Shown here in pieces: positions 5,569 through 22,007 of a DNA stretch of 23,981 nt. The notes under the pieces are model-generated. The model had not been told where the DNA came from. It made no database searches and saw only the letters and a list, made by a program, of their open reading frames with translations. Made by a program: the position numbers and the translations under genes. Numbering within the stretch: the stretch's first letter is position 1; the number at the start of each line of letters is the position of its first letter. This DNA comes from a virus: positions 1-23,981 of the IMG/VR virus record IMGVR_UViG_3300006109_000040. The stretch is one strand, 5' to 3'.

Positions 5569-8088
5569 ATGGCTGGCGGATCATGCAATTATTGTTGCGT
5601 TCCTTGGGGTTGCTGGCCGCCAGTATGCCCAACAGGTGGTTGCTCAGGGAATTGCTGCTTTAGTGGCGGTTGCTGCTCTAGTGGTGGTTGTTGCTATAGT
5701 GGGGGTGGGTGCTGGTGTGGATGCCATTGGCCTTGCAATAGCGGAAGTGGACACTTTCAACCTCCTGCGCCTCCGCCGCCTCCGCCTGTTTGCACGTATC
5801 AGCCTCCTGCGCCATCTCCTGCGCCATCACCATCACCTGTTTGCAATAGCCCGCCTGATTGCATCCCCATTTGTATTCCTCCTATTTGCGAGCCTGTCTG
5901 TGGTCCAGTAGGTGGACCGGGTGGCCCCGGTGCATGCTGCACGCCTATTAAATCACCTGTTTGTACGGGTCCAGTTTGTACTGGTCCAGTTTGTACTGGT
6001 CCAGTTTGCAGCGGGCCTGTTTGTACTGGTCCAGTTTGTACTGGTCCAGTTTGCAGCGGGCCTGTTTGTACGGGTCCAGTTTGCAGCGGGCCTGTTTGTA
6101 CTGGTCCAGTTTGTACTGGTCCAGTTTGCAGCGGGCCTGTTTGTACTGGTCCAGTTTGCAGCGGGCCTGTTTGTACGGGGCCAGTTTGTACTGGTCCAGT
6201 TTGTACGGGTCCAGTTTGCAATAGCCCACCTGACTGTATTCCCATTTGCATTCCGCCTATTTGCGAGCCAGTTTGCGAGCCAGTTTGTGGGCCTGTTTGC
6301 GGTCCTATAGGCGGACCAAATGGCCCAGGTGCATGTTGTATACCTGTTGAGCCCCCAATCTGTTATGGGCCAGTTTGCTGTGAGCCAATATGTACTCCTC
6401 CAGTCTGCTGTGGGCCAGTATGTACTCCTCCAGTTTGCTGTGGGCCAATATGTACTCCCCCAGTTTGTGCTCCTCCAGTCTGCTGTGGGCCAGTATGCAC
6501 CCCTCCAGTTTGTTGTGAGCCTATTGCTTGCTGCATACCTATTTGTATTCCACCTATATGCGCGCCAGTATGCTGCGCCCCAACATGCGACTGCATTCCT
6601 ATTGTTTGCGTAACTTGCTGTGAACCAACTTGCTGTGAGCCTCCAGTTTGCTGTGAGCCTCCAGTTTGTTGTGAGCCACCCCCTTGCTGTATCCCTACTA
6701 TTTGCATAACTTGCACTAAACCAGTTTGTTGTGAGCCACCCCCTTGTTGTGAGCCACCCCCTTGCTGTATCCCTACTATTTGTATAACTTGCACTAAGCC
6801 AGTTTGTTGTGAGCCGCCCCCTTGCTGTATCCCTACTATTTGTATAACTTGCACTAAACCAGTTTGTTGTGAGCCACCCCCTTGTTGTGAGCCTCCAGAT
6901 TGCTGTGAGCCAGCATGCTGCTGCAAGTCTAAAGGCTGCAAGTCTAAAGACTGTAAACCTAAAGACTGTAAGCCCAAAGACTGTAAGCCTAAAAATTGCA
7001 AGCCTACATCGCCTAAAGGCAGCTGCAATAATAGTGGCGCTTTGCCTACAACGCATGGCAAGCCTATAACCGGCGCTTTAAAAGATCAAAACCTAACATC
7101 AAAAGCTGATTATAGTAAAGATCAACTTGAGCAACTTAAACAACTTTTTCCAATGAAAGCTGAGGGCGGCGCCATGAGTTTATGTGTTGAAGAAGCTAAA
7201 AAAGGGATTTTTGCAAATCCTAGTTATGGTATTCCCAATATAGAGATTGTGGGCGATCGACCTGTATATGGCGGCATCAAAGAGACGCAGCCTATACAGC
7301 CTGATGCAGTGCCTTATGCAAATGTACCTGGGTTGCCTAGCAATTTTTTGCCTAATTTACCTACTACACCCACGGAAAAAGCAGAATCTGCAACACCTGA
7401 GCCTATGCCTGGCGCTTTACCTACAACTACAAATAGTCAAACCTGCAATGATTATAGTGTGCACAACACTACGGCGCCTGAAGGGCACATTCCTACAGCG
7501 CCGCAGCATAAGCACTTGCAAACGCAAGGAAGTGCATATGAAATGCAACTTCAGCAATTGCGGCATTTGTATCCGCAAATTGGCCACTTGCATCCTTGTG
7601 TAATGTCTTCATTGGCGGGGATTGACAATCAAGGCGCCCTGCCTAAGGCCGCAACGGGCGGCAGCATATCTTCAATTTTGGGAAATACAGGAATGCCAGG
7701 CGCTACACGTTCTGCAAGTCCTAATGTTTGCTATGGCAACCCATTGTCGCCTAATGCAAAGCTGCACCCACAAAACTTGAATACAGGCGGCGTTCCCGGG
7801 CATCACCCCGAGTTCATTACCGGCGCCACCGGCCATTATGTAAAAGGCAAAGGCGATGGTCAAAGTGATGACATCCCGGCCATGTTGGCTGATGGCGAAT
7901 ACGTGTTTGACGCCGATACTGTGGCTGCATTGGGCAATGGCTCCAGCGACGCAGGGGCAAAATTGCTAGATCATTTTAGAGAAGCTTTAAGAGAGCATAA
8001 ACGAGCAGCGCCAAGTGATAAAATACCACCTGCAGCTTCGCCATTGCAATATATGAAAGAAGCCCTCAAACGGCATAAGGGGAAATAA
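5569..8088 (+). CDS. Hyper-cysteine, proline-rich repeat virion-region protein
   Basis: 839 residues with AAGG before the ATG. By hand count about 116 of the first 485 residues are Cys, an extreme value. Layout: Gly/Cys-rich head (1-60, many CC pairs); Pro-rich linker; a first copy of CNSPPDCIPICIPPICEPVC (92 on); 18 PVC units (130-217); a second copy of that segment (217 on); a long CC/EPP/GPVCC zone with three 20-residue units (about 375-440); CKSKD/CKPKD repeats (452-479). The last 350 residues are ordinary soluble protein with four Cys and end in HPEFITGATGHYVKGKGDG, DDIPAMLADGEYVFDADTV and LQYMKEALKRHK, a C-terminus I associate with phage structural proteins. No signal peptide. The tail probably ties it to the particle while the Cys region forms a cross-linked or metal-binding structure (inference). 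Confidence 0.85.
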   Translation: MAGGSCNYCCVPWGCWPPVCPTGGCSGNCCFSGGCCSSGGCCYSGGGCWCGCHWPCNSGSGHFQPPAPPPPPPVCTYQPPAPSPAPSPSPVCNSPPDCIPICIPPICEPVCGPVGGPGGPGACCTPIKSPVCTGPVCTGPVCTGPVCSGPVCTGPVCTGPVCSGPVCTGPVCSGPVCTGPVCTGPVCSGPVCTGPVCSGPVCTGPVCTGPVCTGPVCNSPPDCIPICIPPICEPVCEPVCGPVCGPIGGPNGPGACCIPVEPPICYGPVCCEPICTPPVCCGPVCTPPVCCGPICTPPVCAPPVCCGPVCTPPVCCEPIACCIPICIPPICAPVCCAPTCDCIPIVCVTCCEPTCCEPPVCCEPPVCCEPPPCCIPTICITCTKPVCCEPPPCCEPPPCCIPTICITCTKPVCCEPPPCCIPTICITCTKPVCCEPPPCCEPPDCCEPACCCKSKGCKSKDCKPKDCKPKDCKPKNCKPTSPKGSCNNSGALPTTHGKPITGALKDQNLTSKADYSKDQLEQLKQLFPMKAEGGAMSLCVEEAKKGIFANPSYGIPNIEIVGDRPVYGGIKETQPIQPDAVPYANVPGLPSNFLPNLPTTPTEKAESATPEPMPGALPTTTNSQTCNDYSVHNTTAPEGHIPTAPQHKHLQTQGSAYEMQLQQLRHLYPQIGHLHPCVMSSLAGIDNQGALPKAATGGSISSILGNTGMPGATRSASPNVCYGNPLSPNAKLHPQNLNTGGVPGHHPEFITGATGHYVKGKGDGQSDDIPAMLADGEYVFDADTVAALGNGSSDAGAKLLDHFREALREHKRAAPSDKIPPAASPLQYMKEALKRHKGK
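5842..5940 (+). repeat. Left flanking copy of the segment bracketing the PVC array
   Basis: Codes for residues 92-124, opening CNSPPDCIPICIPPICEPVC and closing in a GGPGGPGACC stretch. A second, slightly longer copy lies at 6217-6339, directly after the PVC array. The DNA copies are clearly related but diverged, mostly at third codon positions. Confidence 0.8.
5956..6219 (+). repeat. 15-base tandem array coding PVC(T/S)G pentapeptides
   Basis: Seventeen full 15-base units and a final partial one, in frame, encode PVCTG or PVCSG, with 18 Cys spaced exactly five residues apart. Unit variants (CCTGTTTGTACGGGT, CCAGTTTGTACTGGT, CCAGTTTGCAGCGGG) occur in mixed order. This suggests expansion by slippage or unequal recombination of blocks of units rather than of one unit. 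Units are contiguous with no spacers. Confidence 0.95.
6217..6339 (+). repeat. Right flanking copy of the segment bracketing the PVC array
   Basis: Codes for CNSPPDCIPICIPPICEPVC, then an extra EPVCGPVC-like insertion, then GGPNGPGACC. It is the partner of 5842-5940, so the array sits between two related segments in direct orientation. Confidence 0.8.
6691..6888 (+). repeat. 60-base tandem units coding IPTICITCTKPVCCEPPPCC
   Basis: Three copies start at 6691, 6769 and 6829. The first carries an extra 18-base EPPPCC segment, so spacings are 78 and 60 bases. The copies differ by only a few bases, indicating recent duplication. Each 20-residue unit has six Cys, mostly as CC pairs. Confidence 0.9.
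6922..7005 (+). repeat. 15-base tandem units coding CK(S/P)K(D/G/N)
   Basis: Residues 452-479 repeat Cys-Lys-x-Lys-x, with Cys every five residues, the same period as the PVC array but strongly basic. This gives the protein a positively charged, Cys-spaced segment between the CC/EPP zone and the ordinary C-terminal part. Confidence 0.9.
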
Positions 8089-8089
8089 C

Positions 8090-9508
8090 ATGGCAGCACT
8101 CTGTTCTATAACGCCAGTTGGTGCTTGCGCAACGCCTACTGGCACAGTTGGTGCGTCGCCCCCTAGTGGCCAACTTGTAAGTATGCAAGTGTGTAACCTT
8201 GCTTGCTCAGTTGGCGCGCCGCCTCCCGTAACAGGCTTTCATGTGCTAACTCCTGGGCTAACTGGGGCTTTGCCTACATCATCTCCTACGCTTAATAATC
8301 CTATTGTTGGAGGTGCGTCTACGCTAAACACGCCAACTTCAACCCCTGCGCCTTGCCTTGGTGTTACAACCGGCTCGCATGGGGGTTGCAGTATTTTGCA
8401 AGGTAAAGCATTGCCCTGCATTACGACTAAGTCAAGTCAAGTAACTGCGGCGCCAAAGTTTTACACTGACTTTTTAAATAACATTGCTACTGCAGGGGCT
8501 TGTGTAGCTGCTAACGCCCACTATGTTGGGGCAACACCTCTGCAACAGGCCGCGTGGTGCAAAGTTGCTGCTTGCCAAGGCAATTACAAAGGCGCCCTTT
8601 GCGCTGCCAAGAATGTTACTACCGGCGTGCAAAATGCATGTCTTAATCAGCAGGCTCAAAAATACATGAGCCCTTATGTGCATTGCGTAGTAAATCAAAT
8701 TGGCGCCCTTGGGCAAGCCAATATCATGAATAACATTGGCCCTCAGGCCAACGCCGGCATTGTCGGCTCGGGGCAATTTGGCTCAACTCGAGGTGCAACG
8801 GCTTTGGGGCAAGTTCTTTCAAACGCTGCCCTAGGCTTAACGGCGCAACAATCCTGCGCTCTGCAAAAAGGCTACACACAAGCACTATGCACGGCCAAGT
8901 CGCAAGAAAACATGCAACTGGCAGCGGCGAACCAAGGCATTTGCGAGGCCAAGACCACTCAGGCTTTGAGTTTGAACTGCGCCAACGCCTTGGCGACCAT
9001 GGGCGCGCAGCAACAAACCATTGCGCAAAACGCCCAATGCTATCCAATGAAGCAACTGGTTACAGAGTCCAACTTGCTCAAAGGCTACAGCATTCCAGAA
9101 AGCACTTCTTCTTCCTACACTGGGCCTATTCCTGGTGCCTACTCCGCATCTCTGTTGCAACAACTTACTGGCGCCGGTGCATTGGCCAAGGGTCTTATGT
9201 GCGCTTACAAAACGTATAAGTGTATTGCTAAAGGCAGTGGCAGTGGTGGTAAAGGCAGCGGCGGTGGGGGTAGCGGCGGCGGAGGTAGTGGCGGTGGGGG
9301 CGGCTGTAAGGGTGGAAGCGGTGGCGGTGGCGGCTGCAAAGGGCCTGCTTGTGTTGGCACATCCGGCGGTGACCCATGTCAACCAGTTTGCTGCCCACCA
9401 TCTTGCTGCGAACCATCTTGCTGCTGCTCTGGTTGCTGCTCAAGCTGCTGCTCTGGTTGCTGCTCAAGCTGCTGCTCTGGTTGCTGCTCCGGTGGCTGCT
9501 GCGGTTAA
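8090..9508 (+). CDS. Second cysteine-rich virion-region protein
   Basis: 472 residues, start one base after the previous stop, with AAGGGG before the ATG. The middle (KFYTDFLNNIATAGACV, then VGATPLQQAAWCKVAACQGNY, then GALGQANIMNN, then GQFGSTRGATALGQVLSNA) looks like a helical phage structural protein of a kind common in podovirus-type virion operons. It is peppered with single Cys, including MCAYKTYKC. The C-terminus is a Gly-Ser linker (about residues 383-420) followed by QPVCCPPSCCEPSCCC and three CCSGCCSS-type repeats ending in GGCCG. The CCxPxCCEP motif echoes the neighbouring 839-residue protein, so the two may join through these tails (inference). No signal peptide or membrane segment is seen. 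Confidence 0.8.
   Translation: MAALCSITPVGACATPTGTVGASPPSGQLVSMQVCNLACSVGAPPPVTGFHVLTPGLTGALPTSSPTLNNPIVGGASTLNTPTSTPAPCLGVTTGSHGGCSILQGKALPCITTKSSQVTAAPKFYTDFLNNIATAGACVAANAHYVGATPLQQAAWCKVAACQGNYKGALCAAKNVTTGVQNACLNQQAQKYMSPYVHCVVNQIGALGQANIMNNIGPQANAGIVGSGQFGSTRGATALGQVLSNAALGLTAQQSCALQKGYTQALCTAKSQENMQLAAANQGICEAKTTQALSLNCANALATMGAQQQTIAQNAQCYPMKQLVTESNLLKGYSIPESTSSSYTGPIPGAYSASLLQQLTGAGALAKGLMCAYKTYKCIAKGSGSGGKGSGGGGSGGGGSGGGGGCKGGSGGGGGCKGPACVGTSGGDPCQPVCCPPSCCEPSCCCSGCCSSCCSGCCSSCCSGCCSGGCCG
9421..9492 (+). repeat. 24-base tandem repeat coding Cys-pair tail
   Basis: Three adjacent 24-base units at 9421, 9445 and 9469. The first two are identical and the third differs only in its last bases (CCGG for CAAG). 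They encode alternating CCSG and CCSS at the extreme C-terminus of the second Cys-rich protein. Confidence 0.95.
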
Positions 9509-9525: not shown

Positions 9526-11625
9526 ATGGCTGCACTTCCTACAACCGCGCCATCTTTTGGCGGCGATCAAGATGCTCAAAACGAGTATTTAGCCGCCTTA
9601 GAGCGCGTACAGCAATCATTTGAAAACCGCAATAAGACCAATTGGTTCTCCATTGCTGGGGCTTTGCTAAACCCAGGGCGGACCGGCAGCTTTGGCGAGG
9701 CCTTAGGCCGAGTTGGAGATGTTTTAGGCGCGCAGCAGGCTCAGCAAGAACAGCAAGAGCCACAAATTGCTATGATGCGAGCTCAGTTGGCAGCTCAAAA
9801 ATATGAAGTTGCCAATCAAGGCAAGGCCATGAATATGCTAGGCGGCGTGTTTGGCATGGACCCTGCCAAGGTTGCTGAGGGCTTGCAAAATGGTACTATT
9901 AACGCCAACGACCCGTCATTTGCAAGCAAGCTAACGCCTCAACTCTACACGCAAATCTCATTGCTCTATCCTAAACTTGGTGAGACTTTAAAAGGCGCCT
10001 TTGGGATGGACATTGAAAAAGGCAAGCTTAAATCGCAGAATGACACTAATCAGATTGCAGCCATTGAGAAGCTGGCTAAGAATCCTGAATTGTTGCCTGT
10101 CTTCAAACAAATGGGTGTTGTGCCTGCAGACGCAACTTTGGACGCCATCATTAATGGTACAGCCCCAGTTAATGGCAGCATACTTAATGACGCAATAACG
10201 CCGCAGGATAAAAAGCCACCTGCACAGGGGCAAGAAGTTGGTGGTGGTAGTGGCAATACACAGCCGCCTGCTGCTAATCAAAATCAACGTGCAGGGCAGC
10301 AAAGCTTTAGCATGCCTGTCGATGTTGCCAGCAGTAGATTGACAAGCCCCTTTGGGCCCAGGACTAACCCTGTTACGCAGCAGCAAGAGAATCATCCTGG
10401 CTGGGACATGGCAGCGCCTAAAGGCACTCCGGTTGCTAGCATTGGTAATGGTACTGTTTTGCACGTTGGCGCTGATAGTGGCACAAAAACTGACTACGGC
10501 AATAATGTGATTGTTGACTATGGCAATGGCATTACAGTTCGCTATGGCCACCTAGATAAGATTGACCCCAACTTGAAAGAAGGGGCGCCAATTGGGGCGG
10601 GTGTTCCAATTGGTGGTGTTGGCAGTACCGGTTTGTCAACAGGCAATCATCTAGATATGTCTGTGTTTAAAGATGGTAAGCCCGTCGACCCTGCTACCAT
10701 CTTTGGCAATCCTTGGTCTAAACCTGGCTCGCCTATGGCTAGTGTTGAGCCTGTGCAAACTAATAAAGGCATACAGGTTACTACACCAATTCCTCCTAGG
10801 GAGCCTGGCGAGCCTCTAGACGCTTACCGCGAACGTGTCAAGTCTGTCACACAGGCTAACATTGAAATTTCTAGAGAAGCTGCTAAAGTGCCAATTGCTA
10901 TTCAGCAAAGACAAAAAGAGTCTGACATTGCAGTTGGGCAAAAACAAAAAGAATCTGATATTGCAGTTGAGCAAAAGGGCAAAGAGTCCAATATTGATGT
11001 TGGGCAAAAAGACCGCGAGGCTCGTCAAGCCCCTTACATTGAGAAGCATAATCAAATTGCTTCTTATGACTACAATACGGTTCAGCAAAACAACGCCAAA
11101 CTGTCCGAGTTGATGGCCTTGGTTAAAGCGCACCCCGCTGCTGTGGGGCAGTTGACGCATCAAGGCGTTATGTTTGCTTTGGCGCAGTTGGCCGAGAGTG
11201 GCGTTAACACACCAATTGGTAGCTTATCAATTCCAGTTACTGATGCTCTGAACAAGTTAAACCTGTCCGATAAAGAGCAAGAAGCTGCACGAAACATTAC
11301 GCAGTTGATTTCTGACTTGAACCAGTCTGTGATGAAGACGGGCAAAAGTATTTATGGCCCGCAAATCAGTACGTTTGACGCTCAGCAAATGGCTAAGCCT
11401 GGGTTTAAAGATACCGACCCCGCGTCTTTTATTACATACTTAGGCGCCAAACAGCGTGTTGTCAATACTTACATGGGCAAAATGGCAGAGGCTCAGGCTG
11501 ATTACTTTGACGCTCACCCAACGGCGTCAACGGCCTCGTTCCAACGCTCCAAAGTCTATAAAGACATTGTTGATGAATTTAATGCCACATATCGTGACTT
11601 AACCAGCAAATCACCTTACAGGTAA
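9526..11625 (+). CDS. Virion protein with an M23 peptidase-like domain
   Basis: 699 residues with AAAAGG before the ATG and no Cys seen. Gln-rich helical N-terminus (1-150), low-complexity linker (about 225-260), M23 (LytM-like) domain about 265-395, 11-residue coiled-coil repeats (460-492), then a long helical C-terminal region. M23 landmarks align by spacing with LytM: H290 and D294 (HPGWD), H342 (YGHL) and H375 in GNHLDMSV. The final zinc ligand, His in the usual HxH, is Asp377 here, so metal binding may be altered or lost. M23 domains in virion proteins locally open peptidoglycan during DNA ejection. Two Cys-rich genes lie upstream and an internal-protein candidate downstream, consistent with an ejection-protein role. 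Confidence 0.75.
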   Translation: MAALPTTAPSFGGDQDAQNEYLAALERVQQSFENRNKTNWFSIAGALLNPGRTGSFGEALGRVGDVLGAQQAQQEQQEPQIAMMRAQLAAQKYEVANQGKAMNMLGGVFGMDPAKVAEGLQNGTINANDPSFASKLTPQLYTQISLLYPKLGETLKGAFGMDIEKGKLKSQNDTNQIAAIEKLAKNPELLPVFKQMGVVPADATLDAIINGTAPVNGSILNDAITPQDKKPPAQGQEVGGGSGNTQPPAANQNQRAGQQSFSMPVDVASSRLTSPFGPRTNPVTQQQENHPGWDMAAPKGTPVASIGNGTVLHVGADSGTKTDYGNNVIVDYGNGITVRYGHLDKIDPNLKEGAPIGAGVPIGGVGSTGLSTGNHLDMSVFKDGKPVDPATIFGNPWSKPGSPMASVEPVQTNKGIQVTTPIPPREPGEPLDAYRERVKSVTQANIEISREAAKVPIAIQQRQKESDIAVGQKQKESDIAVEQKGKESNIDVGQKDREARQAPYIEKHNQIASYDYNTVQQNNAKLSELMALVKAHPAAVGQLTHQGVMFALAQLAESGVNTPIGSLSIPVTDALNKLNLSDKEQEAARNITQLISDLNQSVMKTGKSIYGPQISTFDAQQMAKPGFKDTDPASFITYLGAKQRVVNTYMGKMAEAQADYFDAHPTASTASFQRSKVYKDIVDEFNATYRDLTSKSPYR
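10903..11001 (+). repeat. 33-base (11-residue) coiled-coil repeats
   Basis: Residues 460-492 are three 11-residue units of the form xQKQKESDIAV, with a fourth partial unit (GQKDREA). An 11-residue (hendecad) period favours a right-handed coiled coil. The DNA units are similar but not identical. Confidence 0.8.
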
Positions 11626-12773: not shown

Positions 12774-12952
12774 CATGGTGCTTGCTGCGCGTCACTGATG
12801 GCCGTTTGGTACTGCGCCACCAATGCTAGCTCGACCTTAACAGCCTGTAAAGCTGTTGTAAGGTCATTTATTGAGTGATTTTGCCTTAATAGGCTCATCA
12901 CAAAAGTACGAAGTAGGGCCTCTGAGGGACTGCTTAAACTTGTGTCAGCCAT
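12773..12952 (-). CDS. Small 59-residue protein at the end of the early block
   Basis: Reads MADTSLSSPSEALLRTF, then VMSLLRQNHSINDLTTALQA, and ends QTAISDAQQAP. The ATG lies 19 bases inside the end of the thymidylate-synthase-family gene. The stop TGA overlaps the T-run of the opposing terminator. Composition is that of a small helical soluble protein. No strong Shine-Dalgarno is seen, so translation would rely on coupling. Without it the 160 bases after the synthase gene would be empty, unusual in this dense block. Function unknown. Confidence 0.55.
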   Translation of the reverse strand: MADTSLSSPSEALLRTFVMSLLRQNHSINDLTTALQAVKVELALVAQYQTAISDAQQAP

Positions 12953-13719
12953 TTTGAAAACTCAAAGTAAGGGTTGATGGACTTTTCAATGAGATTGTGC
13001 GCTTCGTAGCGAAAGATTCTTGGCGGTGGGTCTGTCAAGGGTACATGTTGACTTTGGCTAAGAATGGAGTTGAACATCTCAACTCGAGATTCATAGACGT
13101 GGAAAGACCCCACCGAAACAGTTAAGGTTCCAACACTGGCGTTAAGCAACGCGGCTATAATTTCCTGCAGGAAACTGAATGTTGGTATGTCATTAGCCAT
13201 GCCCCATAGAATGTCCTGAGACCTCATAATGGCACGAGCATTAAGGTAACCACCACGCAGTCTAAATTCAATCGCCAGTGTGCACGGAACATCCTTGGCG
13301 TCAAGGTCCATATGATCAGCGTCAGTGCCATACATTGGTATGACAGCCCGACGGCTCATAGGGTCATCGCTTAATAGTTTGACAATATGTTTGACCCCGT
13401 GACGGCCAAACCAATAGCTACCATAATTGCTATTAAGCTTTCCATTTGCGACAATCTTCCCCCACTGCTTCGCATGGTCAGCAATAGACAAATCGTTAGG
13501 GTCAGCATGGATATACCAAGCCATTTCCCGCTTAAGATAGGAAAGATTGAAGTTGCGGCCGGCGAAAGAATTAAAACGGACATAAGGAGCAAGAGAATAA
13601 GTAAAATTCTCGATCTCCAAAGTACGCTCACCTCTTGGGGCTGTCCATTTGCCGTCTTTTGCAAGGGCTCGGTAAAGCCAGATAAGGTCTTTTTCATAAT
13701 TGATTTGCGTAATTTCCAT
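12934..13719 (-). CDS. Thymidylate-synthase-family enzyme, predicted dCMP hydroxymethylase
   Basis: 261 residues from ATG at 13719; an in-frame ATG at 13749 is possible, but neither has a clear Shine-Dalgarno. Family features (numbered from 13719) are LNSNYG near 95-100, DPMSRR near 119-124 (phosphate-binding Arg pair), catalytic Cys146 in VPCT, MRSQD near 165-169, and SFHVYE near 205-210. The order and spacing resemble T4 gp42 (INSNYG, NPDSRR, MRSNDVVFG, SLHVY). At the site where thymidylate synthases have Asn to read uracil (E. coli N177) this protein has Asp177 in GMANDIP, as in dCMP hydroxymethylases. The expected reaction is dCMP plus methylene-tetrahydrofolate to 5-hydroxymethyl-dCMP; a dCMP methyltransferase is the main alternative. 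It follows the kinase fusion with a 26-base overlap. Confidence 0.8.
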   Translation of the reverse strand: MEITQINYEKDLIWLYRALAKDGKWTAPRGERTLEIENFTYSLAPYVRFNSFAGRNFNLSYLKREMAWYIHADPNDLSIADHAKQWGKIVANGKLNSNYGSYWFGRHGVKHIVKLLSDDPMSRRAVIPMYGTDADHMDLDAKDVPCTLAIEFRLRGGYLNARAIMRSQDILWGMANDIPTFSFLQEIIAALLNASVGTLTVSVGSFHVYESRVEMFNSILSQSQHVPLTDPPPRIFRYEAHNLIEKSINPYFEFSKWLTQV

Positions 13720-14638
13720 GGTCAGTATGTGTGATTGAGTAAGGTTCATCAGGGTAGTGCTGCATGTGGTGCAACGGGGGAGGGAGCTTAGTAACTTTGA
13801 TGCCGTTATTAAGCGCCCATGTATATGCGTTATTGCCTAACGCAAAGATTCTGGAGGGTCGCAGCGCCTTTAAAAAGGCCGGGTCCAATGGAACCCCTTG
13901 GTATGTTTGAGTGTTGATCCAGTAAAGTTTGGATTCACTTACGCCTTCATTGTCCAAGGTCGCTGCCAGCATACGGCTGGGGCCGTCATTATCCAAGAAG
14001 TTGATGAAAGGCACAACCACGGCAGAGTCTTTGACATTGGCCCTAGGCCCGCGGTCACACAGCATAAGCATATTGCCTTCATTAAAGCAACCACCACCGC
14101 TGGCTTTATTTTCAATTGTTGCCCGTGATAGATGGGCCAGCAATTCATCAACACTGTCTTCTTGATAGTTGTAGTGAATGACTGGCAAGGCCGTGTGCAG
14201 GTCCAAAAGCTCATAGTCACCGTACACATCTTGTAATTGTGTAGGAGTGTCTAAGTACTCATCATTGATTCTGCTTTTAAAAGTTTTTAGGCAGGTTTCA
14301 AAGTCAGGCAGGCAGTTGATGACAACGGCGCCGCGGGAAAGGGCCACACGCTCAAGCATACGCTTTCTTGGTGTGTCAATACGATTCAAGCCATCACGGT
14401 AAGCATTGCCGTAAATAGGCTCAGACAGCCAGGACCTGTCCATGATAACTATGTCATCGTGCGTCAATGCAGGGGTCATGCCCCTAAAATAAATTTTGCA
14501 CAGATGCTCGGATGTCAAATCTCTATATGGGCCATGCTTAACAATGTGCACCAGCTTGTTGCCTTGCAACTTTTGTCTAAGGGTCTCGGCAAGTGTGGTC
14601 TTGCCAGCCCCATCAGGACCTTCCAGGATGATTATCAT
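13694..14638 (-). CDS. Thymidylate-kinase-like dNMP kinase fused to a uracil-DNA-glycosylase-like domain
   Basis: 314 residues from ATG at 14638 (a TTG two codons earlier is less likely). Residues 1-170 are a dTMP-kinase-type P-loop domain: GPDGAGKTT at 7-15 and MDRSWLSEPIYG at 66-77 (DR motif). Residues about 188-300 look like the UDG superfamily: LCDRGPR at 192-199 where family 4/5 enzymes have a GExPG loop, VPF at 209-211, a strand YWINTQ at 239-244, ALGNNA at 266-271 (usual LGxxA), and HHMQHYP at 290-296 near the expected HPS-type motif. Catalytic residues of the UDG motifs are not clearly kept. It lies between the glycosyltransferase and synthase genes with overlaps on both sides. The kinase probably phosphorylates the modified dNMP; the second domain's role is unknown. 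Confidence 0.75.
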   Translation of the reverse strand: MIIILEGPDGAGKTTLAETLRQKLQGNKLVHIVKHGPYRDLTSEHLCKIYFRGMTPALTHDDIVIMDRSWLSEPIYGNAYRDGLNRIDTPRKRMLERVALSRGAVVINCLPDFETCLKTFKSRINDEYLDTPTQLQDVYGDYELLDLHTALPVIHYNYQEDSVDELLAHLSRATIENKASGGGCFNEGNMLMLCDRGPRANVKDSAVVVPFINFLDNDGPSRMLAATLDNEGVSESKLYWINTQTYQGVPLDPAFLKALRPSRIFALGNNAYTWALNNGIKVTKLPPPLHHMQHYPDEPYSITHTDHGNYANQL

Positions 14639-15524
14639 TTGCAAATCTCTCTAACTTTTCTAATGTCATATGTAATGACTCGACTTTTAAGTCCATGCTT
14701 TGCGCTATGGCAATCATTTCCAATTCATAGCGGTCTAGGCTTTCCAAGAAGTCTAGTGTATAGCTATAAGACTGAGCAATCATGCCTAATTCAAGTGGGT
14801 TGCCACCGAGGACACATCCGGCAGCTGCAGCGTGCAAATACCGAACTCGCCACCATCCACACCCTGCATGAGCGTAGGTTGGACATAAAACTCCATAATA
14901 AGACCCATATTGCCAAACAACATCACTTTCCAGTATTCGTGCTTGTCCGAGAGATTTACCTCCAATTGAATGTATAGGCCACTTAAGGCTTTGAGCGCTG
15001 GCCCATTCATGTGCTTCCCTTGAAAGTGATGCGTTATACCAAGCTTGCTTGCGTTGTTGCCAAGATTGCTTATACACAGGCGGCATTTCATACAAGCAAG
15101 ATGGGTCCCATTGCAAAATGTTTGCAACAGGTAAATTCATTTTAGAAACATTGCCCCATGAAAAGAGCGGCGCAATCCAGGTGCGGTCTGTAAGCGCATC
15201 CAGATCGATCTTATCTTTCCATGTGGGCAATATCTTTTGAAACGCCCAGTCATCAAGACAAATATACGCGTCAGGTCTTTGCTCCAACACGTATATGGCA
15301 TTGTCCGGTGCAATGGCATTTCCATCCAGCGGATAAACATACACAAACACGGCGTCATACATGCTAAGATCTTCGCCAAGCTTTACATAGCGATGATCCA
15401 CATTGTAGCCAAGACGACCATAACCCTTGGCCATAAGCTCGGGGATAGACACAAACTTGGTTGAGCTAGCTCTATCAGGTTTATTGATATGCGTCTCGGT
15501 AACGCCGGTTATGAGTATGTTCAT
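14613..15524 (-). CDS. GT-B-like glycosyltransferase, possibly DNA-modifying
   Basis: 303 residues. The start ATG overlaps the previous stop (ATGA), so translation is coupled. The N-terminus MNILITGVTET, then FVSIPELMAKGYGRLGYNVDH, then YDAVFVYVYPLDG looks like the first Rossmann half of a GT-B enzyme. The segment GCGWWRVRYLHAAAAGCVLGG (222-241) matches the donor-binding helix-loop of nucleotide-sugar transferases (Arg-x-x-x, then Ala-rich, then GC/S), followed by a strand and ELGMIAQSYSYTLDFLESLD. Beside the dNMP kinase and the synthase-family enzyme it may glycosylate a hydroxymethylated base, as T4 alpha- and beta-glucosyltransferases do. It could instead act on another substrate. Its 3' end overlaps the kinase gene. 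Confidence 0.65.
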   Translation of the reverse strand: MNILITGVTETHINKPDRASSTKFVSIPELMAKGYGRLGYNVDHRYVKLGEDLSMYDAVFVYVYPLDGNAIAPDNAIYVLEQRPDAYICLDDWAFQKILPTWKDKIDLDALTDRTWIAPLFSWGNVSKMNLPVANILQWDPSCLYEMPPVYKQSWQQRKQAWYNASLSREAHEWASAQSLKWPIHSIGGKSLGQARILESDVVWQYGSYYGVLCPTYAHAGCGWWRVRYLHAAAAGCVLGGNPLELGMIAQSYSYTLDFLESLDRYELEMIAIAQSMDLKVESLHMTLEKLERFANDNHPGRS

Positions 15525-15823
15525 TCTTCGCTTTCGTCGCTTTCGCTTTCGTTGTCCTCATCGCCACTCAGTTCGATGTAGCCATTTTGCACATCATACT
15601 TAATGTCGCCTGATCGTCCGCCGGCCTCAACGTACTCGCCAACTGTCATGCCGGTTTGATACAACTCAAAACGTTCATAGGCCAAGCTGTCTTGACGCTT
15701 AGGGTTGGACTGTGCCAACACGGTAATGATGGCAGATTTCTTGGTGTGCTTACGCGGAGCAGTAGATAGTTCAATCACTTTAGGTGCTTCTATAATTAAG
15801 GGTTTACGGGTAGGTTTGTTCAT
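15521..15823 (-). CDS. Small protein with basic N-terminus and acidic tail
   Basis: 100 residues. The N-terminal half is basic (RKPLIIEAP, then APRKHTKKSAIITVLAQSNPK). The middle, RFELYQTGMTVGEYVEAGG, looks like a short helix-turn-helix-like fold. The C-terminus is a strongly acidic run (SGDEDNESESDESEE). Acidic tails are common on phage ssDNA-binding and DNA-mimic proteins, but no OB-fold signature is evident. The leader GTTTGAAAGGAAATC before the ATG carries the TTGAAAGG motif seen before three other early genes, and overlaps the helicase stop. The stop overlaps the glycosyltransferase ATG. Function unknown. Confidence 0.7.
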   Translation of the reverse strand: MNKPTRKPLIIEAPKVIELSTAPRKHTKKSAIITVLAQSNPKRQDSLAYERFELYQTGMTVGEYVEAGGRSGDIKYDVQNGYIELSGDEDNESESDESEE

Positions 15824-21111: not shown

Positions 21112-21483
21112 TTATAGCCCCTTGGCGGTATTGATAAGTTTTTCAATAGCCGGCTCGGGTGGATGCCAACCTTCTGGTTTGATGACATGCTTTTCATTGT
21201 CAGCAATTTGCTTTTGCATGTTTGCATGATGCACGGCCTCAAAGATCTCCTCAAAAGGTAACCCCATAGCATGTGCACAGCCCATAGCAACGTAGACCAA
21301 GTCAGCCAAAGCATCGGCGGCGTCAACAATGGATTCACGTTCATTGGCGCGCATGAACTCACTAAGCTCTTCAAGCATGAAGCGTGAGAAGTAGCTCACA
21401 TCGGCTGATTGCAAAAGCGTTGGCGTTGCCGACACAGCCAGGTTCATCTTTTTACGAAAGGTTCTAACTAGTTTGTACATCAT
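21112..21483 (-). CDS. MazG-like nucleotide pyrophosphohydrolase
   Basis: 123 residues, all-helical. Metal-binding motifs are LEELSEF (Glu38, Glu39, Glu42) and DAADALADLVYVAMG (Asp54, Asp57, Asp61), followed by GLPFEEIFEAVHHANMQK, the usual layout of MazG/PRA-PH-type enzymes that hydrolyse NTPs to NMP and pyrophosphate. T4 dCTPase (gp56) belongs to the same broad superfamily. With the predicted dCMP hydroxymethylase downstream, removal of dCTP is an attractive role, though dUTPase or house-cleaning activity is equally possible from sequence. ATG at 21483 is chosen because it overlaps the preceding stop (ATGA). Its 3' end supplies the next gene's Shine-Dalgarno. Confidence 0.85.
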   Translation of the reverse strand: MMYKLVRTFRKKMNLAVSATPTLLQSADVSYFSRFMLEELSEFMRANERESIVDAADALADLVYVAMGCAHAMGLPFEEIFEAVHHANMQKQIADNEKHVIKPEGWHPPEPAIEKLINTAKGL

Positions 21484-22007
21484 GCGGCCTTTAATTGTTG
21501 TTTGTCCATAGAGTTCCAAATTTGTTGGAGCCAATAGGGGGGTGTTGCAACGCCTTTGTAGTAGACCATGTCCATACGGTCACGTTTGCTGGCGTAAAAG
21601 TGTTGGTATGACTCGATGGGGTCGTTGGTTTTGTATTCGTCGGGCATGGCCAATGGGGGAGGCTGCCAAGAAAACTTAGCTTTTTGCAATACAGGCGGCG
21701 CAACTTGCAATTCGGCCACAAGGATTTCGTGTGACTTGTGGTGCTTGCCGTAACGTTTGAAGAATTCACGGCCAAGGCCTGAGGCTAACTCGGCCAGCCA
21801 GTCGTAATGAGCCTTGGACTGACGGGCCCAGATGTTGCTTGGATGATTGATATGCGTTGGCTTATAGGAAACCATATGGCCATTGCCATGATGATGGTGC
21901 GCCGTGGCCAGCATTTGGCATGACTCGATAAGCATTTTGCCGACATGTTTGTCGCAATGCATGCCGGCTGCAATACGTGGCAAGTGATGGAGATAGAAGA
22001 TGTTCAT
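21480..22007 (-). CDS. Conserved phage protein with CDKHVGKM motif
   Basis: 175 residues from ATG at 22007, behind TTTTTGAAAGGTATTGT. The N-terminus MNIFYLHHLPRIAAGMHCDK, then HVGKMLIESCQMLATAHHHH, then YKPTHINHPSNIWAR, and the C-terminus PPPLAMPDEYKTN, then ESYQHFYASKRD, then TPPYWLQ, match a family I have seen as hypothetical proteins in many phages. The abundance of conserved His and Asp (CDKHV, HHHHGNGH, THINHP) suggests a metal-dependent enzyme or DNA-repair factor, but I know of no proven activity. It is the first gene after a hairpin and promoter-like element (22036-22066) and is coupled to the MazG gene. Confidence 0.75.
   Translation of the reverse strand: MNIFYLHHLPRIAAGMHCDKHVGKMLIESCQMLATAHHHHGNGHMVSYKPTHINHPSNIWARQSKAHYDWLAELASGLGREFFKRYGKHHKSHEILVAELQVAPPVLQKAKFSWQPPPLAMPDEYKTNDPIESYQHFYASKRDRMDMVYYKGVATPPYWLQQIWNSMDKQQLKAA

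What the first reader, a model, noticed from the sequence alone, without database searches (positions are those of the whole stretch)
12934..15524. Predicted cassette for modified (probably glycosylated) cytosine in phage DNA
Seen: overlapping genes for a GT-B-like glycosyltransferase, a dNMP kinase and a thymidylate-synthase-family enzyme with Asp at the base-reading site (GMANDIP) and gp42-like motifs. Known: T4 makes hydroxymethyl-dCMP with gp42, phosphorylates it with gp1, removes dCTP with gp56 and adds glucose with glucosyltransferases. Inference: this phage has an analogous pathway, with the MazG-like protein at 21112-21483 as a possible dCTPase, probably to resist host nucleases.
Basis: partly seen in the sequence, partly recalled or inferred. 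Interest (0 to 1): 0.82.

Follow-up and report, generated by a model that had tools for sequence, protein, structure and literature searches.

The report
Probable phage cytosine-glycosylation gene cassette
Three overlapping phage genes look like a pathway that makes hydroxymethylated cytosine and then attaches a sugar to it, probably disguising the phage's DNA from bacterial enzymes that cut DNA; the idea is known from phage T4, but the parts here are arranged and built differently.

Summary
The synthase has every T4 dCMP-hydroxymethylase residue I could check: Asp at E. coli position 177 (68 of 68 distinct relatives), the pre-cysteine Asp, NSNYG, Thr147. Its best solved matches are MilA and T4 gp42. 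The GT model's best structural match is T4 beta-glucosyltransferase (Z 18.2, tied with SenB). Gene order is kept in 180 of 180 complete loci (66 distinct triples). A MazG-like gene occurs in 15 of 15 longer relatives, which lack ThyX and dCMP deaminase. Full-length kinase homologues lie beside Asp177 synthases in AXL3, PW916 and ctUtU524; AXL3 DNA resists 35 of 37 restriction enzymes. Nine of ten sampled phages with a GT homologue encode an Asp177 synthase; C48C1 does not. New details: the kinase has an unexplained C-terminal domain, weakly like uracil-DNA glycosylases, and five of those ten GT homologues sit beside a UDP-galactopyranose mutase. No chemistry was measured; sugar, dCTPase role and host are unknown. 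Verdict: new variant of a known kind.

The parts
12934..13719 (-). dCMP hydroxymethylase-type thymidylate-synthase-family enzyme, 261 aa (corrected start ATG 13719)
   Evidence: PF00303; best PDB matches MilA 5e-20 and T4 gp42 8e-12; Asp at Ec177, Thr at Ec147, Cys146 and NSNYG invariant; hhalign to T4 gp42 E 1e-15; start
13694..14638 (-). two-domain protein, 314 aa: residues ~1-177 thymidylate-kinase-fold nucleotide kinase, residues ~180-314 unexplained domain
   Evidence: PF02223 over the P-loop; AlphaFold2 pLDDT 87.4, pTM 0.88; thymidylate kinase Z 14.9 over residues 1-176
13697..14101 (-). C-terminal domain of the kinase protein, weakly uracil-DNA-glycosylase-like (suggestive only)
   Evidence: ctUtU524 homologue: UdgX model E 0.0086, PF03167 E 0.17; hhalign to UDG profiles E 0.01-0.02 against 0.098 or worse for 12 control proteins; the window domain itself hits nothing
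14613..15524 (-). GT-B-fold glycosyltransferase, 303 aa, proposed to glycosylate hydroxymethylcytosine in DNA
   Evidence: AlphaFold2 pLDDT 86.7, pTM 0.87; T4 beta-glucosyltransferase 1nzd Z 18.2, rmsd 3.8, 280 aligned; SenB 17.4 (tied), T4 alpha-glucosyltransferase 15.2
21112..21534 (-). MazG-like NTP pyrophosphohydrolase, candidate dCTPase
   Evidence: PF01503 58.7 bits, cut-off 21.3; EELSE motif; match in 15 of 15 longer relatives
15521..15823 (-). 100-aa ORF of unknown function just upstream of the GT (4-base overlap); usual but not universal neighbour
   Evidence: present in most loci, not found in L072, L074, L079, L087, L088, L092, L093; no Pfam or PHROG match

Best explanation
The phage makes modified cytosine before replication and decorates it afterwards. 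The synthase (12934-13719) turns dCMP into 5-hydroxymethyl-dCMP with methylene-tetrahydrofolate. The kinase half of 13694-14638 phosphorylates that monophosphate towards the triphosphate, probably with host nucleoside diphosphate kinase, and the phage family A polymerase incorporates it. The MazG-like enzyme (21112-21534) removes competing dCTP and supplies dCMP. The GT-B enzyme (14613-15524) then puts a sugar from a host nucleotide-sugar on the hydroxymethyl group in DNA, protecting it from nucleases. Shown here: the genes, their conserved coupling, the active-site residues and the folds. Inferred: every reaction, the order of steps, the dCTPase role, DNA as the acceptor, the benefit. The sugar is unknown.
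For: Synthase: best solved matches are cytosine hydroxymethylases, MilA clearly and gp42 narrowly ahead of the first thymidylate synthase; Asp177, Thr147, Cys146, Ser92, Tyr94 in 68 of 68 distinct relatives and Asp three before the Cys invariant in 44 aligned. In T4 the corresponding D179, D145, S94, Y96 and C148 are needed for hydroxymethylation (PMC6400193, passages). MilA prefers CMP, and changing its K133 to R and A176 to S shifted it to dCMP (same paper); the window has R and S there. It is far below NCBIfam thymidylate-synthase cut-offs (best 56.5 of 327 bits). Asp177 and position 147 are the two residues that best separate synthases of cytosine-modified from unmodified environmental contigs (PMC8670742, section 11 read). 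GT. Context: one PF00303 gene and a MazG relative in 15 of 15 longer relatives, no PF00383 deaminase and no ThyX in 16 of 16 records. Full-length kinase homologues (4 records, 3 phages) lie beside Asp177 synthases; AXL3 DNA resisted 35 of 37 enzymes, cut only at A/T-only sites (PMC7504290, passages). GT homologues co-occur with Asp177 synthases in 9 of 10 phages sampled from 39 records.
Against: No chemistry exists for this phage or its close relatives. GT and T4 BGT do not match by sequence (hhalign prob 1.4), and SenB, which does not act on DNA as far as I recall, ties in the fold comparison. Phage C48C1 has the GT homologue without any PF00303 gene, so the GT family is not tied to hydroxymethylcytosine everywhere. 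Three of the nine co-occurring phages are T4-like, where gp42 is expected anyway, and four are Gordonia phages that may share ancestry. AXL3 has no detected GT homologue, and its synthase lacks Ser92 and Arg127, so its modified base may differ.
Confidence: 0.72

Rival explanations
1. The phage DNA carries plain 5-hydroxymethylcytosine; the GT-B protein sugars a host envelope glycan (for example to block superinfection) and only travels with the nucleotide genes.
For: GT-B folds serve many acceptors; SenB and other non-DNA enzymes score close to BGT; C48C1 has the GT and a UDP-galactopyranose mutase but no PF00303, which would also suit a cell-wall role.
Against: GT overlaps or abuts the kinase gene in all 66 distinct triples, always first in order; best Z is T4 BGT; GT homologues co-occur with Asp177 synthases in 9 of 10 phages sampled.
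Confidence: 0.15
2. The synthase is a dCMP methylase that makes 5-methyl-dCMP; phage Xp12 DNA contains 5-methylcytosine.
For: Asn177Asp alone turns a thymidylate synthase into a dCMP methylase (stated in PMC8670742); Xp12 DNA has 5mC and resists 196 of 218 enzymes (PMC7653180, passages).
Against: The window also has Asp at the T4 D145 place and the NSNYG motif, which in T4 position and activate water for hydroxymethylation; a methyl product leaves nothing for the GT to act on. Xp12's own sequence could not be compared.
Confidence: 0.07
3. An ordinary thymidylate pathway: synthase, dTMP kinase and MazG house-cleaning to raise dTTP.
For: Family names (PF00303, PF02223) and the published reading of the AXL3 and PW916 homologues as a thymidylate pathway.
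Against: Asp177 in 68 of 68; no dCMP deaminase in 16 of 16 records; scores far below NCBIfam thymidylate-synthase cut-offs; AXL3 also has a thymidylate-synthase-complementing protein according to its authors.
Confidence: 0.03

Closest known systems
T4 gp42 (dCMP hydroxymethylase) with b-gt, gp1 and gp56
   Same: Synthase carries the same catalytic and base-reading residues; GT has the BGT fold; a nucleotide kinase and an NTP pyrophosphatase are present.
   Different: Three-gene overlapping cassette; kinase is a thymidylate-kinase-fold protein with an extra C-terminal domain; GT has no detectable sequence match to BGT; family A polymerase; longer relatives are mostly 45-60 kb. gp1 and gp56 were not compared by sequence; their roles are recalled.
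Stenotrophomonas phage AXL3 / Pseudoxanthomonas phage PW916 / ctUtU524 module
   Same: Full-length kinase homologue, Asp177 synthase and NTP pyrophosphatase side by side; their polymerases are the nearest among named records, 34-38%; AXL3 DNA resists restriction at sites with G/C.
   Different: No GT homologue detected; dCMP deaminase follows; AXL3 synthase has Gly92 and Gln127.
MetaGPA cytosine-modified contigs with dCMP hydroxymethylase and 5hmC carbamoyltransferase (PMC8670742)
   Same: Asp177 synthase with PF01503 pyrophosphohydrolase on environmental phage contigs.
   Different: Second step is a carbamoyltransferase; none appeared among the 34 G002 ORFs scanned. Acinetobacter phage MD-2021a and Xp15, among the nearest named synthase relatives, have an annotated NodU/Nol-like carbamoyltransferase.
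Shewanella phage Thanatos deoxypentosyl-cytosine (PMC12838424)
   Same: Predicted dCMP hydroxymethylase, dCTPase and glycosyltransferase candidates, with a sugar on cytosine shown by mass spectrometry (passages).
   Different: Thanatos encodes a UDP-sugar pyrophosphorylase; no sugar-nucleotide enzyme was seen here.

Membership tests
dCMP hydroxymethylase (T4 gp42 type) | thymidylate-synthase-family protein with catalytic Cys and phosphate-binding Arg pair | tested here: met
   PF00303; Cys146, Arg126, Arg127 in 68 of 68
dCMP hydroxymethylase (T4 gp42 type) | Asp at the base-reading position (E. coli N177, T4 D179) | tested here: met
   68 of 68 distinct relatives
dCMP hydroxymethylase (T4 gp42 type) | hydroxymethylation residues T4 S94, Y96, D145 | tested here: met
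   Ser92/Tyr94 (E. coli numbers) 68 of 68; Asp three before Cys invariant in 44. In one search the column read for E. coli 143 was out of register and is not used
dCMP hydroxymethylase (T4 gp42 type) | deoxy- rather than ribonucleotide type (not Lys/Ala as in MilA) | tested here: met
   Arg and Ser at the places of MilA K133 and A176
dCMP hydroxymethylase (T4 gp42 type) | converts dCMP to hydroxymethyl-dCMP | not testable with these tools
   needs enzyme assay
DNA glucosyltransferase (T4 BGT/AGT) | GT-B fold resembling BGT | tested here: met
   1nzd Z 18.2, rmsd 3.8, 280 aligned; tied with SenB 17.4
DNA glucosyltransferase (T4 BGT/AGT) | sequence relation to BGT | tested here: inconclusive
   hhalign prob 1.4, E 0.038
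DNA glucosyltransferase (T4 BGT/AGT) | transfers a sugar to hydroxymethylcytosine in DNA | not testable with these tools
   needs enzyme assay
dTMP/dNMP kinase | P-loop kinase of thymidylate-kinase fold | tested here: met
   PF02223 31.3 of 27 bits; Z 14.9
dTMP/dNMP kinase | NCBIfam dTMP kinase equivalog cut-off | tested here: not met
   TIGR00041 35.4 of 83.25 bits, so it is not filed as a dTMP kinase
Uracil-DNA glycosylase superfamily (C-terminal domain) | profile or fold match to UDG | tested here: inconclusive
   the domain could not be folded and searched alone (one search lists only kinase matches)
All-alpha NTP pyrophosphohydrolase (MazG-like) | PF01503 profile and EExxE motif | tested here: met
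   58.7 of 21.3 bits; EELSE; the motif's role is recalled
All-alpha NTP pyrophosphohydrolase (MazG-like) | dCTP specificity | not testable with these tools
   needs enzyme assay

The most novel reading that the evidence does not exclude
This GT is one clade of an unrecognised BGT-fold family of hydroxymethylcytosine glycosyltransferases spread over T4-like, Gordonia and freshwater phages. Members beside a UDP-galactopyranose mutase would add galactofuranose (or another furanose) to DNA, a base not known to me; the window clade, lacking the mutase, would use a host nucleotide-sugar. In parallel, the kinase's C-terminal domain is a glycosylase-derived base reader that gates which cytosine nucleotide is phosphorylated or kept.
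Probability: 0.25. Interest if true: 0.72.

Novelty: new variant of a known kind. Interest (0 to 1): 0.52.

Why it matters
Glycosylated cytosine is the classic T4 trick against host nucleases. Here a compact, differently built version of that trick occurs in a widespread uncultured phage group, with a GT family that no Pfam model matched. If the adjacent mutase genes in relatives mean furanose sugars on DNA, a new class of DNA base becomes directly testable in cultured Aeromonas and Erwinia phages. It also gives a concrete candidate route for the unexplained restriction resistance of AXL3.

Tried and rejected
GT against T4 BGT by sequence: no significant match, so only the fold is claimed. Pfam, NCBIfam and PDB sequence searches with the GT: nothing usable; PHROGs gave one unknown family over residues 1-95. 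C-terminal kinase domain: Pfam, PHROGs and PDB sequence searches with the window or AXL3 domain gave nothing usable; the UDG link rests on one homologue and weak profile scores. A viral-contig scan with the ctUtU524 kinase found no stretch. A bacterial and archaeal genome scan with the kinase alignment matched 22 stretches and confirmed none, so no host was learned. Xp12, wanted as a 5-methylcytosine control, is not held. The nearest terminase carrier, MW202545, was opened over 12000-46000 to look for the cassette; that stretch is mostly structural and the rest was not examined. Literature: none of the titles and abstract openings listed by searches described this three-gene cassette, a kinase fused to such a domain, or galactofuranose on phage DNA; that library lacks most subscription papers and preprints. 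Passages of PMC12783734 and PMC10611076 gave no link between such a GT and DNA; PMC6630229 reports an Agrobacterium T4-like phage whose DNA resisted nine enzymes and that has a predicted dCMP hydroxymethylase and a UDP-galactopyranose mutase, read by its authors as a cell-wall gene (passages); I did not test it for the GT.
Full report
What is there. The window is a 23,981-base virus record. Three minus-strand ORFs overlap at 15524-12934. Comparison with relatives moves the synthase start to ATG 13719 and the kinase start to ATG 14638: several relatives, one 99% identical, carry in-frame stops before the synthase ATG. With these starts GT/kinase and kinase/synthase each overlap by 26 bases in the window.

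Conservation. Scans of the viral contig collection with each protein and with two alignments brought in relatives; GT identities run from 57 to 74% among the distinct set aligned, with one near copy at 99%. Of 213 loci holding at least one of the three ORFs complete, 180 hold all three, and all 180 are in the order GT, kinase, synthase; they include overlapping fetches of the same contigs and collapse to 66 distinct triples, of which 65 overlap at each junction. The 33 loci without all three were not examined one by one. A scan of bacterial and archaeal genomes with the kinase alignment confirmed nothing.

Synthase. By sequence the best solved relatives are MilA, a CMP hydroxymethylase (5e-20), then T4 gp42 (8e-12), narrowly before bacterial thymidylate synthases (1e-11). 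Aligned with E. coli ThyA, T4 gp42 and an SPO1-type dUMP enzyme, the window has Asp at 177 where ThyA and the SPO1-type enzyme have Asn, Thr at 147 as in gp42, Asp at the place of T4 D145, and NSNYG exactly as gp42. Asp177, Thr147, Cys146, Ser92 and Tyr94 are the same in 68 of 68 distinct relatives; in that alignment the column for position 143 was out of register, so the D145 claim rests (44 sequences, invariant). The T4 roles come from PMC6400193 (passages): D179 reads cytosine, D145 activates water, S94 and Y96 hold the catalytic water, C148 is the nucleophile. The SPO1-type dUMP enzyme shares the pre-cysteine Asp, so that residue speaks for hydroxymethylation and Asp177 for cytosine. In PMC8670742 (section 11 read) positions 177 and 147 are the two residues that best separate synthases of cytosine-modified from unmodified contigs.

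GT. No sequence library recognises it, apart from a PHROG of unknown function. AlphaFold2 gave pLDDT 86.7 and pTM 0.87. The eight Foldseek matches with E up to 0.001 are glycosyltransferases (tll1591 is so named). VIA-align 2 ranks T4 BGT first (Z 18.2, rmsd 3.8, 280 aligned, 12% identity), with SenB tied at 17.4 and T4 AGT at 15.2. Sequence profile comparison with BGT is not significant. The function as a DNA glycosyltransferase is therefore inferred from fold plus context.

Kinase. Residues 1-177 match thymidylate kinases (Z 14.9). The score is below the NCBIfam dTMP kinase cut-off, so the substrate is open. The C-terminal domain (about 180-314) is predicted as alternating strands and helices. 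Evidence for a uracil-DNA-glycosylase relation is weak: one homologue hits UdgX at E 0.0086 and PF03167 at 0.17. Profile comparison with all 41 sequences gives 0.01-0.02 for phage UDG profiles against 0.098 or worse for 12 control proteins; with only the three distant homologues UDG gave 0.046-0.083 against controls from 0.095; E. coli Mug did no better than controls in either (0.17 and 0.61). I treat it as a lead.

Genome setting. In 15 of 15 longer relatives there is exactly one PF00303 gene and a MazG relative; in 16 of 16 records, the window included, no PF00383 deaminase, no ThyX and no PF03275 mutase. Among 34 of 57 ORFs of one relative (G002), Pfam shows polymerase, helicase, nuclease, terminase and lysis genes but no sugar-nucleotide enzyme. 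Several of these records may be incomplete.

Independent links. Full-length kinase homologues (at least 80% covered) are in 4 of 61 matching phage records, three phages: AXL3, PW916 and ctUtU524. In each the next gene is an Asp177 synthase and an NTP pyrophosphatase lies beside it. AXL3 DNA was cut by 2 of 37 enzymes, both with A/T-only sites; its authors suspect altered G or C and leave the chemistry open (PMC7504290, passages). For comparison T4 (glucosylated) resisted 214 of 227 enzymes (PMC7653180, passages). GT homologues are in 39 phage records; I examined ten of these 39, chosen to span the lineages. Nine encode a PF00303 gene with Asp177, the three T4-like ones also an Asn177 gene; C48C1 has none. 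Five of the ten have a UDP-galactopyranose mutase, in each case next to the GT (in L111 and L112 the mutase gene is annotated hypothetical and identified by position).

Judgement. The cassette works like T4's hydroxymethylcytosine pathway. I file the synthase as a dCMP hydroxymethylase on tested residues, do not file the GT as a member of the BGT family, and leave the kinase substrate and the MazG substrate open. The overall kind is known; the variant (GT without a Pfam match, two-domain kinase, fixed overlapping order, mutase-linked relatives) was not described in anything listed by the searches named under Tried and rejected.

Noticed in passing
window 5569-8088 (+): 839-aa ORF with 120 cysteines (115 in the first 480 residues) and 21 GPVC units, in the structural half of the record; a long frame in the roughly corresponding stretch of relative G002 holds no cysteine.
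   Followed up: partly
window 8090-9508 (+): 472-aa ORF with a Gly- and Cys-rich C-terminus, 43 cysteines.
   Followed up: no
L108, L111, L112, L269, L270: UDP-galactopyranose mutase gene next to the GT homologue in five of ten phages sampled, absent from 16 of 16 records of the window clade.
   Followed up: partly
L112 (phage C48C1): GT homologue plus mutase but no PF00303 gene in the whole record: what would the GT act on there?
   Followed up: no
L001, L004: Acinetobacter phage MD-2021a and Xanthomonas phage Xp15 have an Asp177 synthase a few genes from an annotated NodU/Nol-like carbamoyltransferase, matching the 5hmC-carbamoyl pathway of PMC8670742.
   Followed up: partly
window 9526-11625 (+): 699-aa ORF that by eye holds a peptidase M23-like stretch; not searched.
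   Followed up: no
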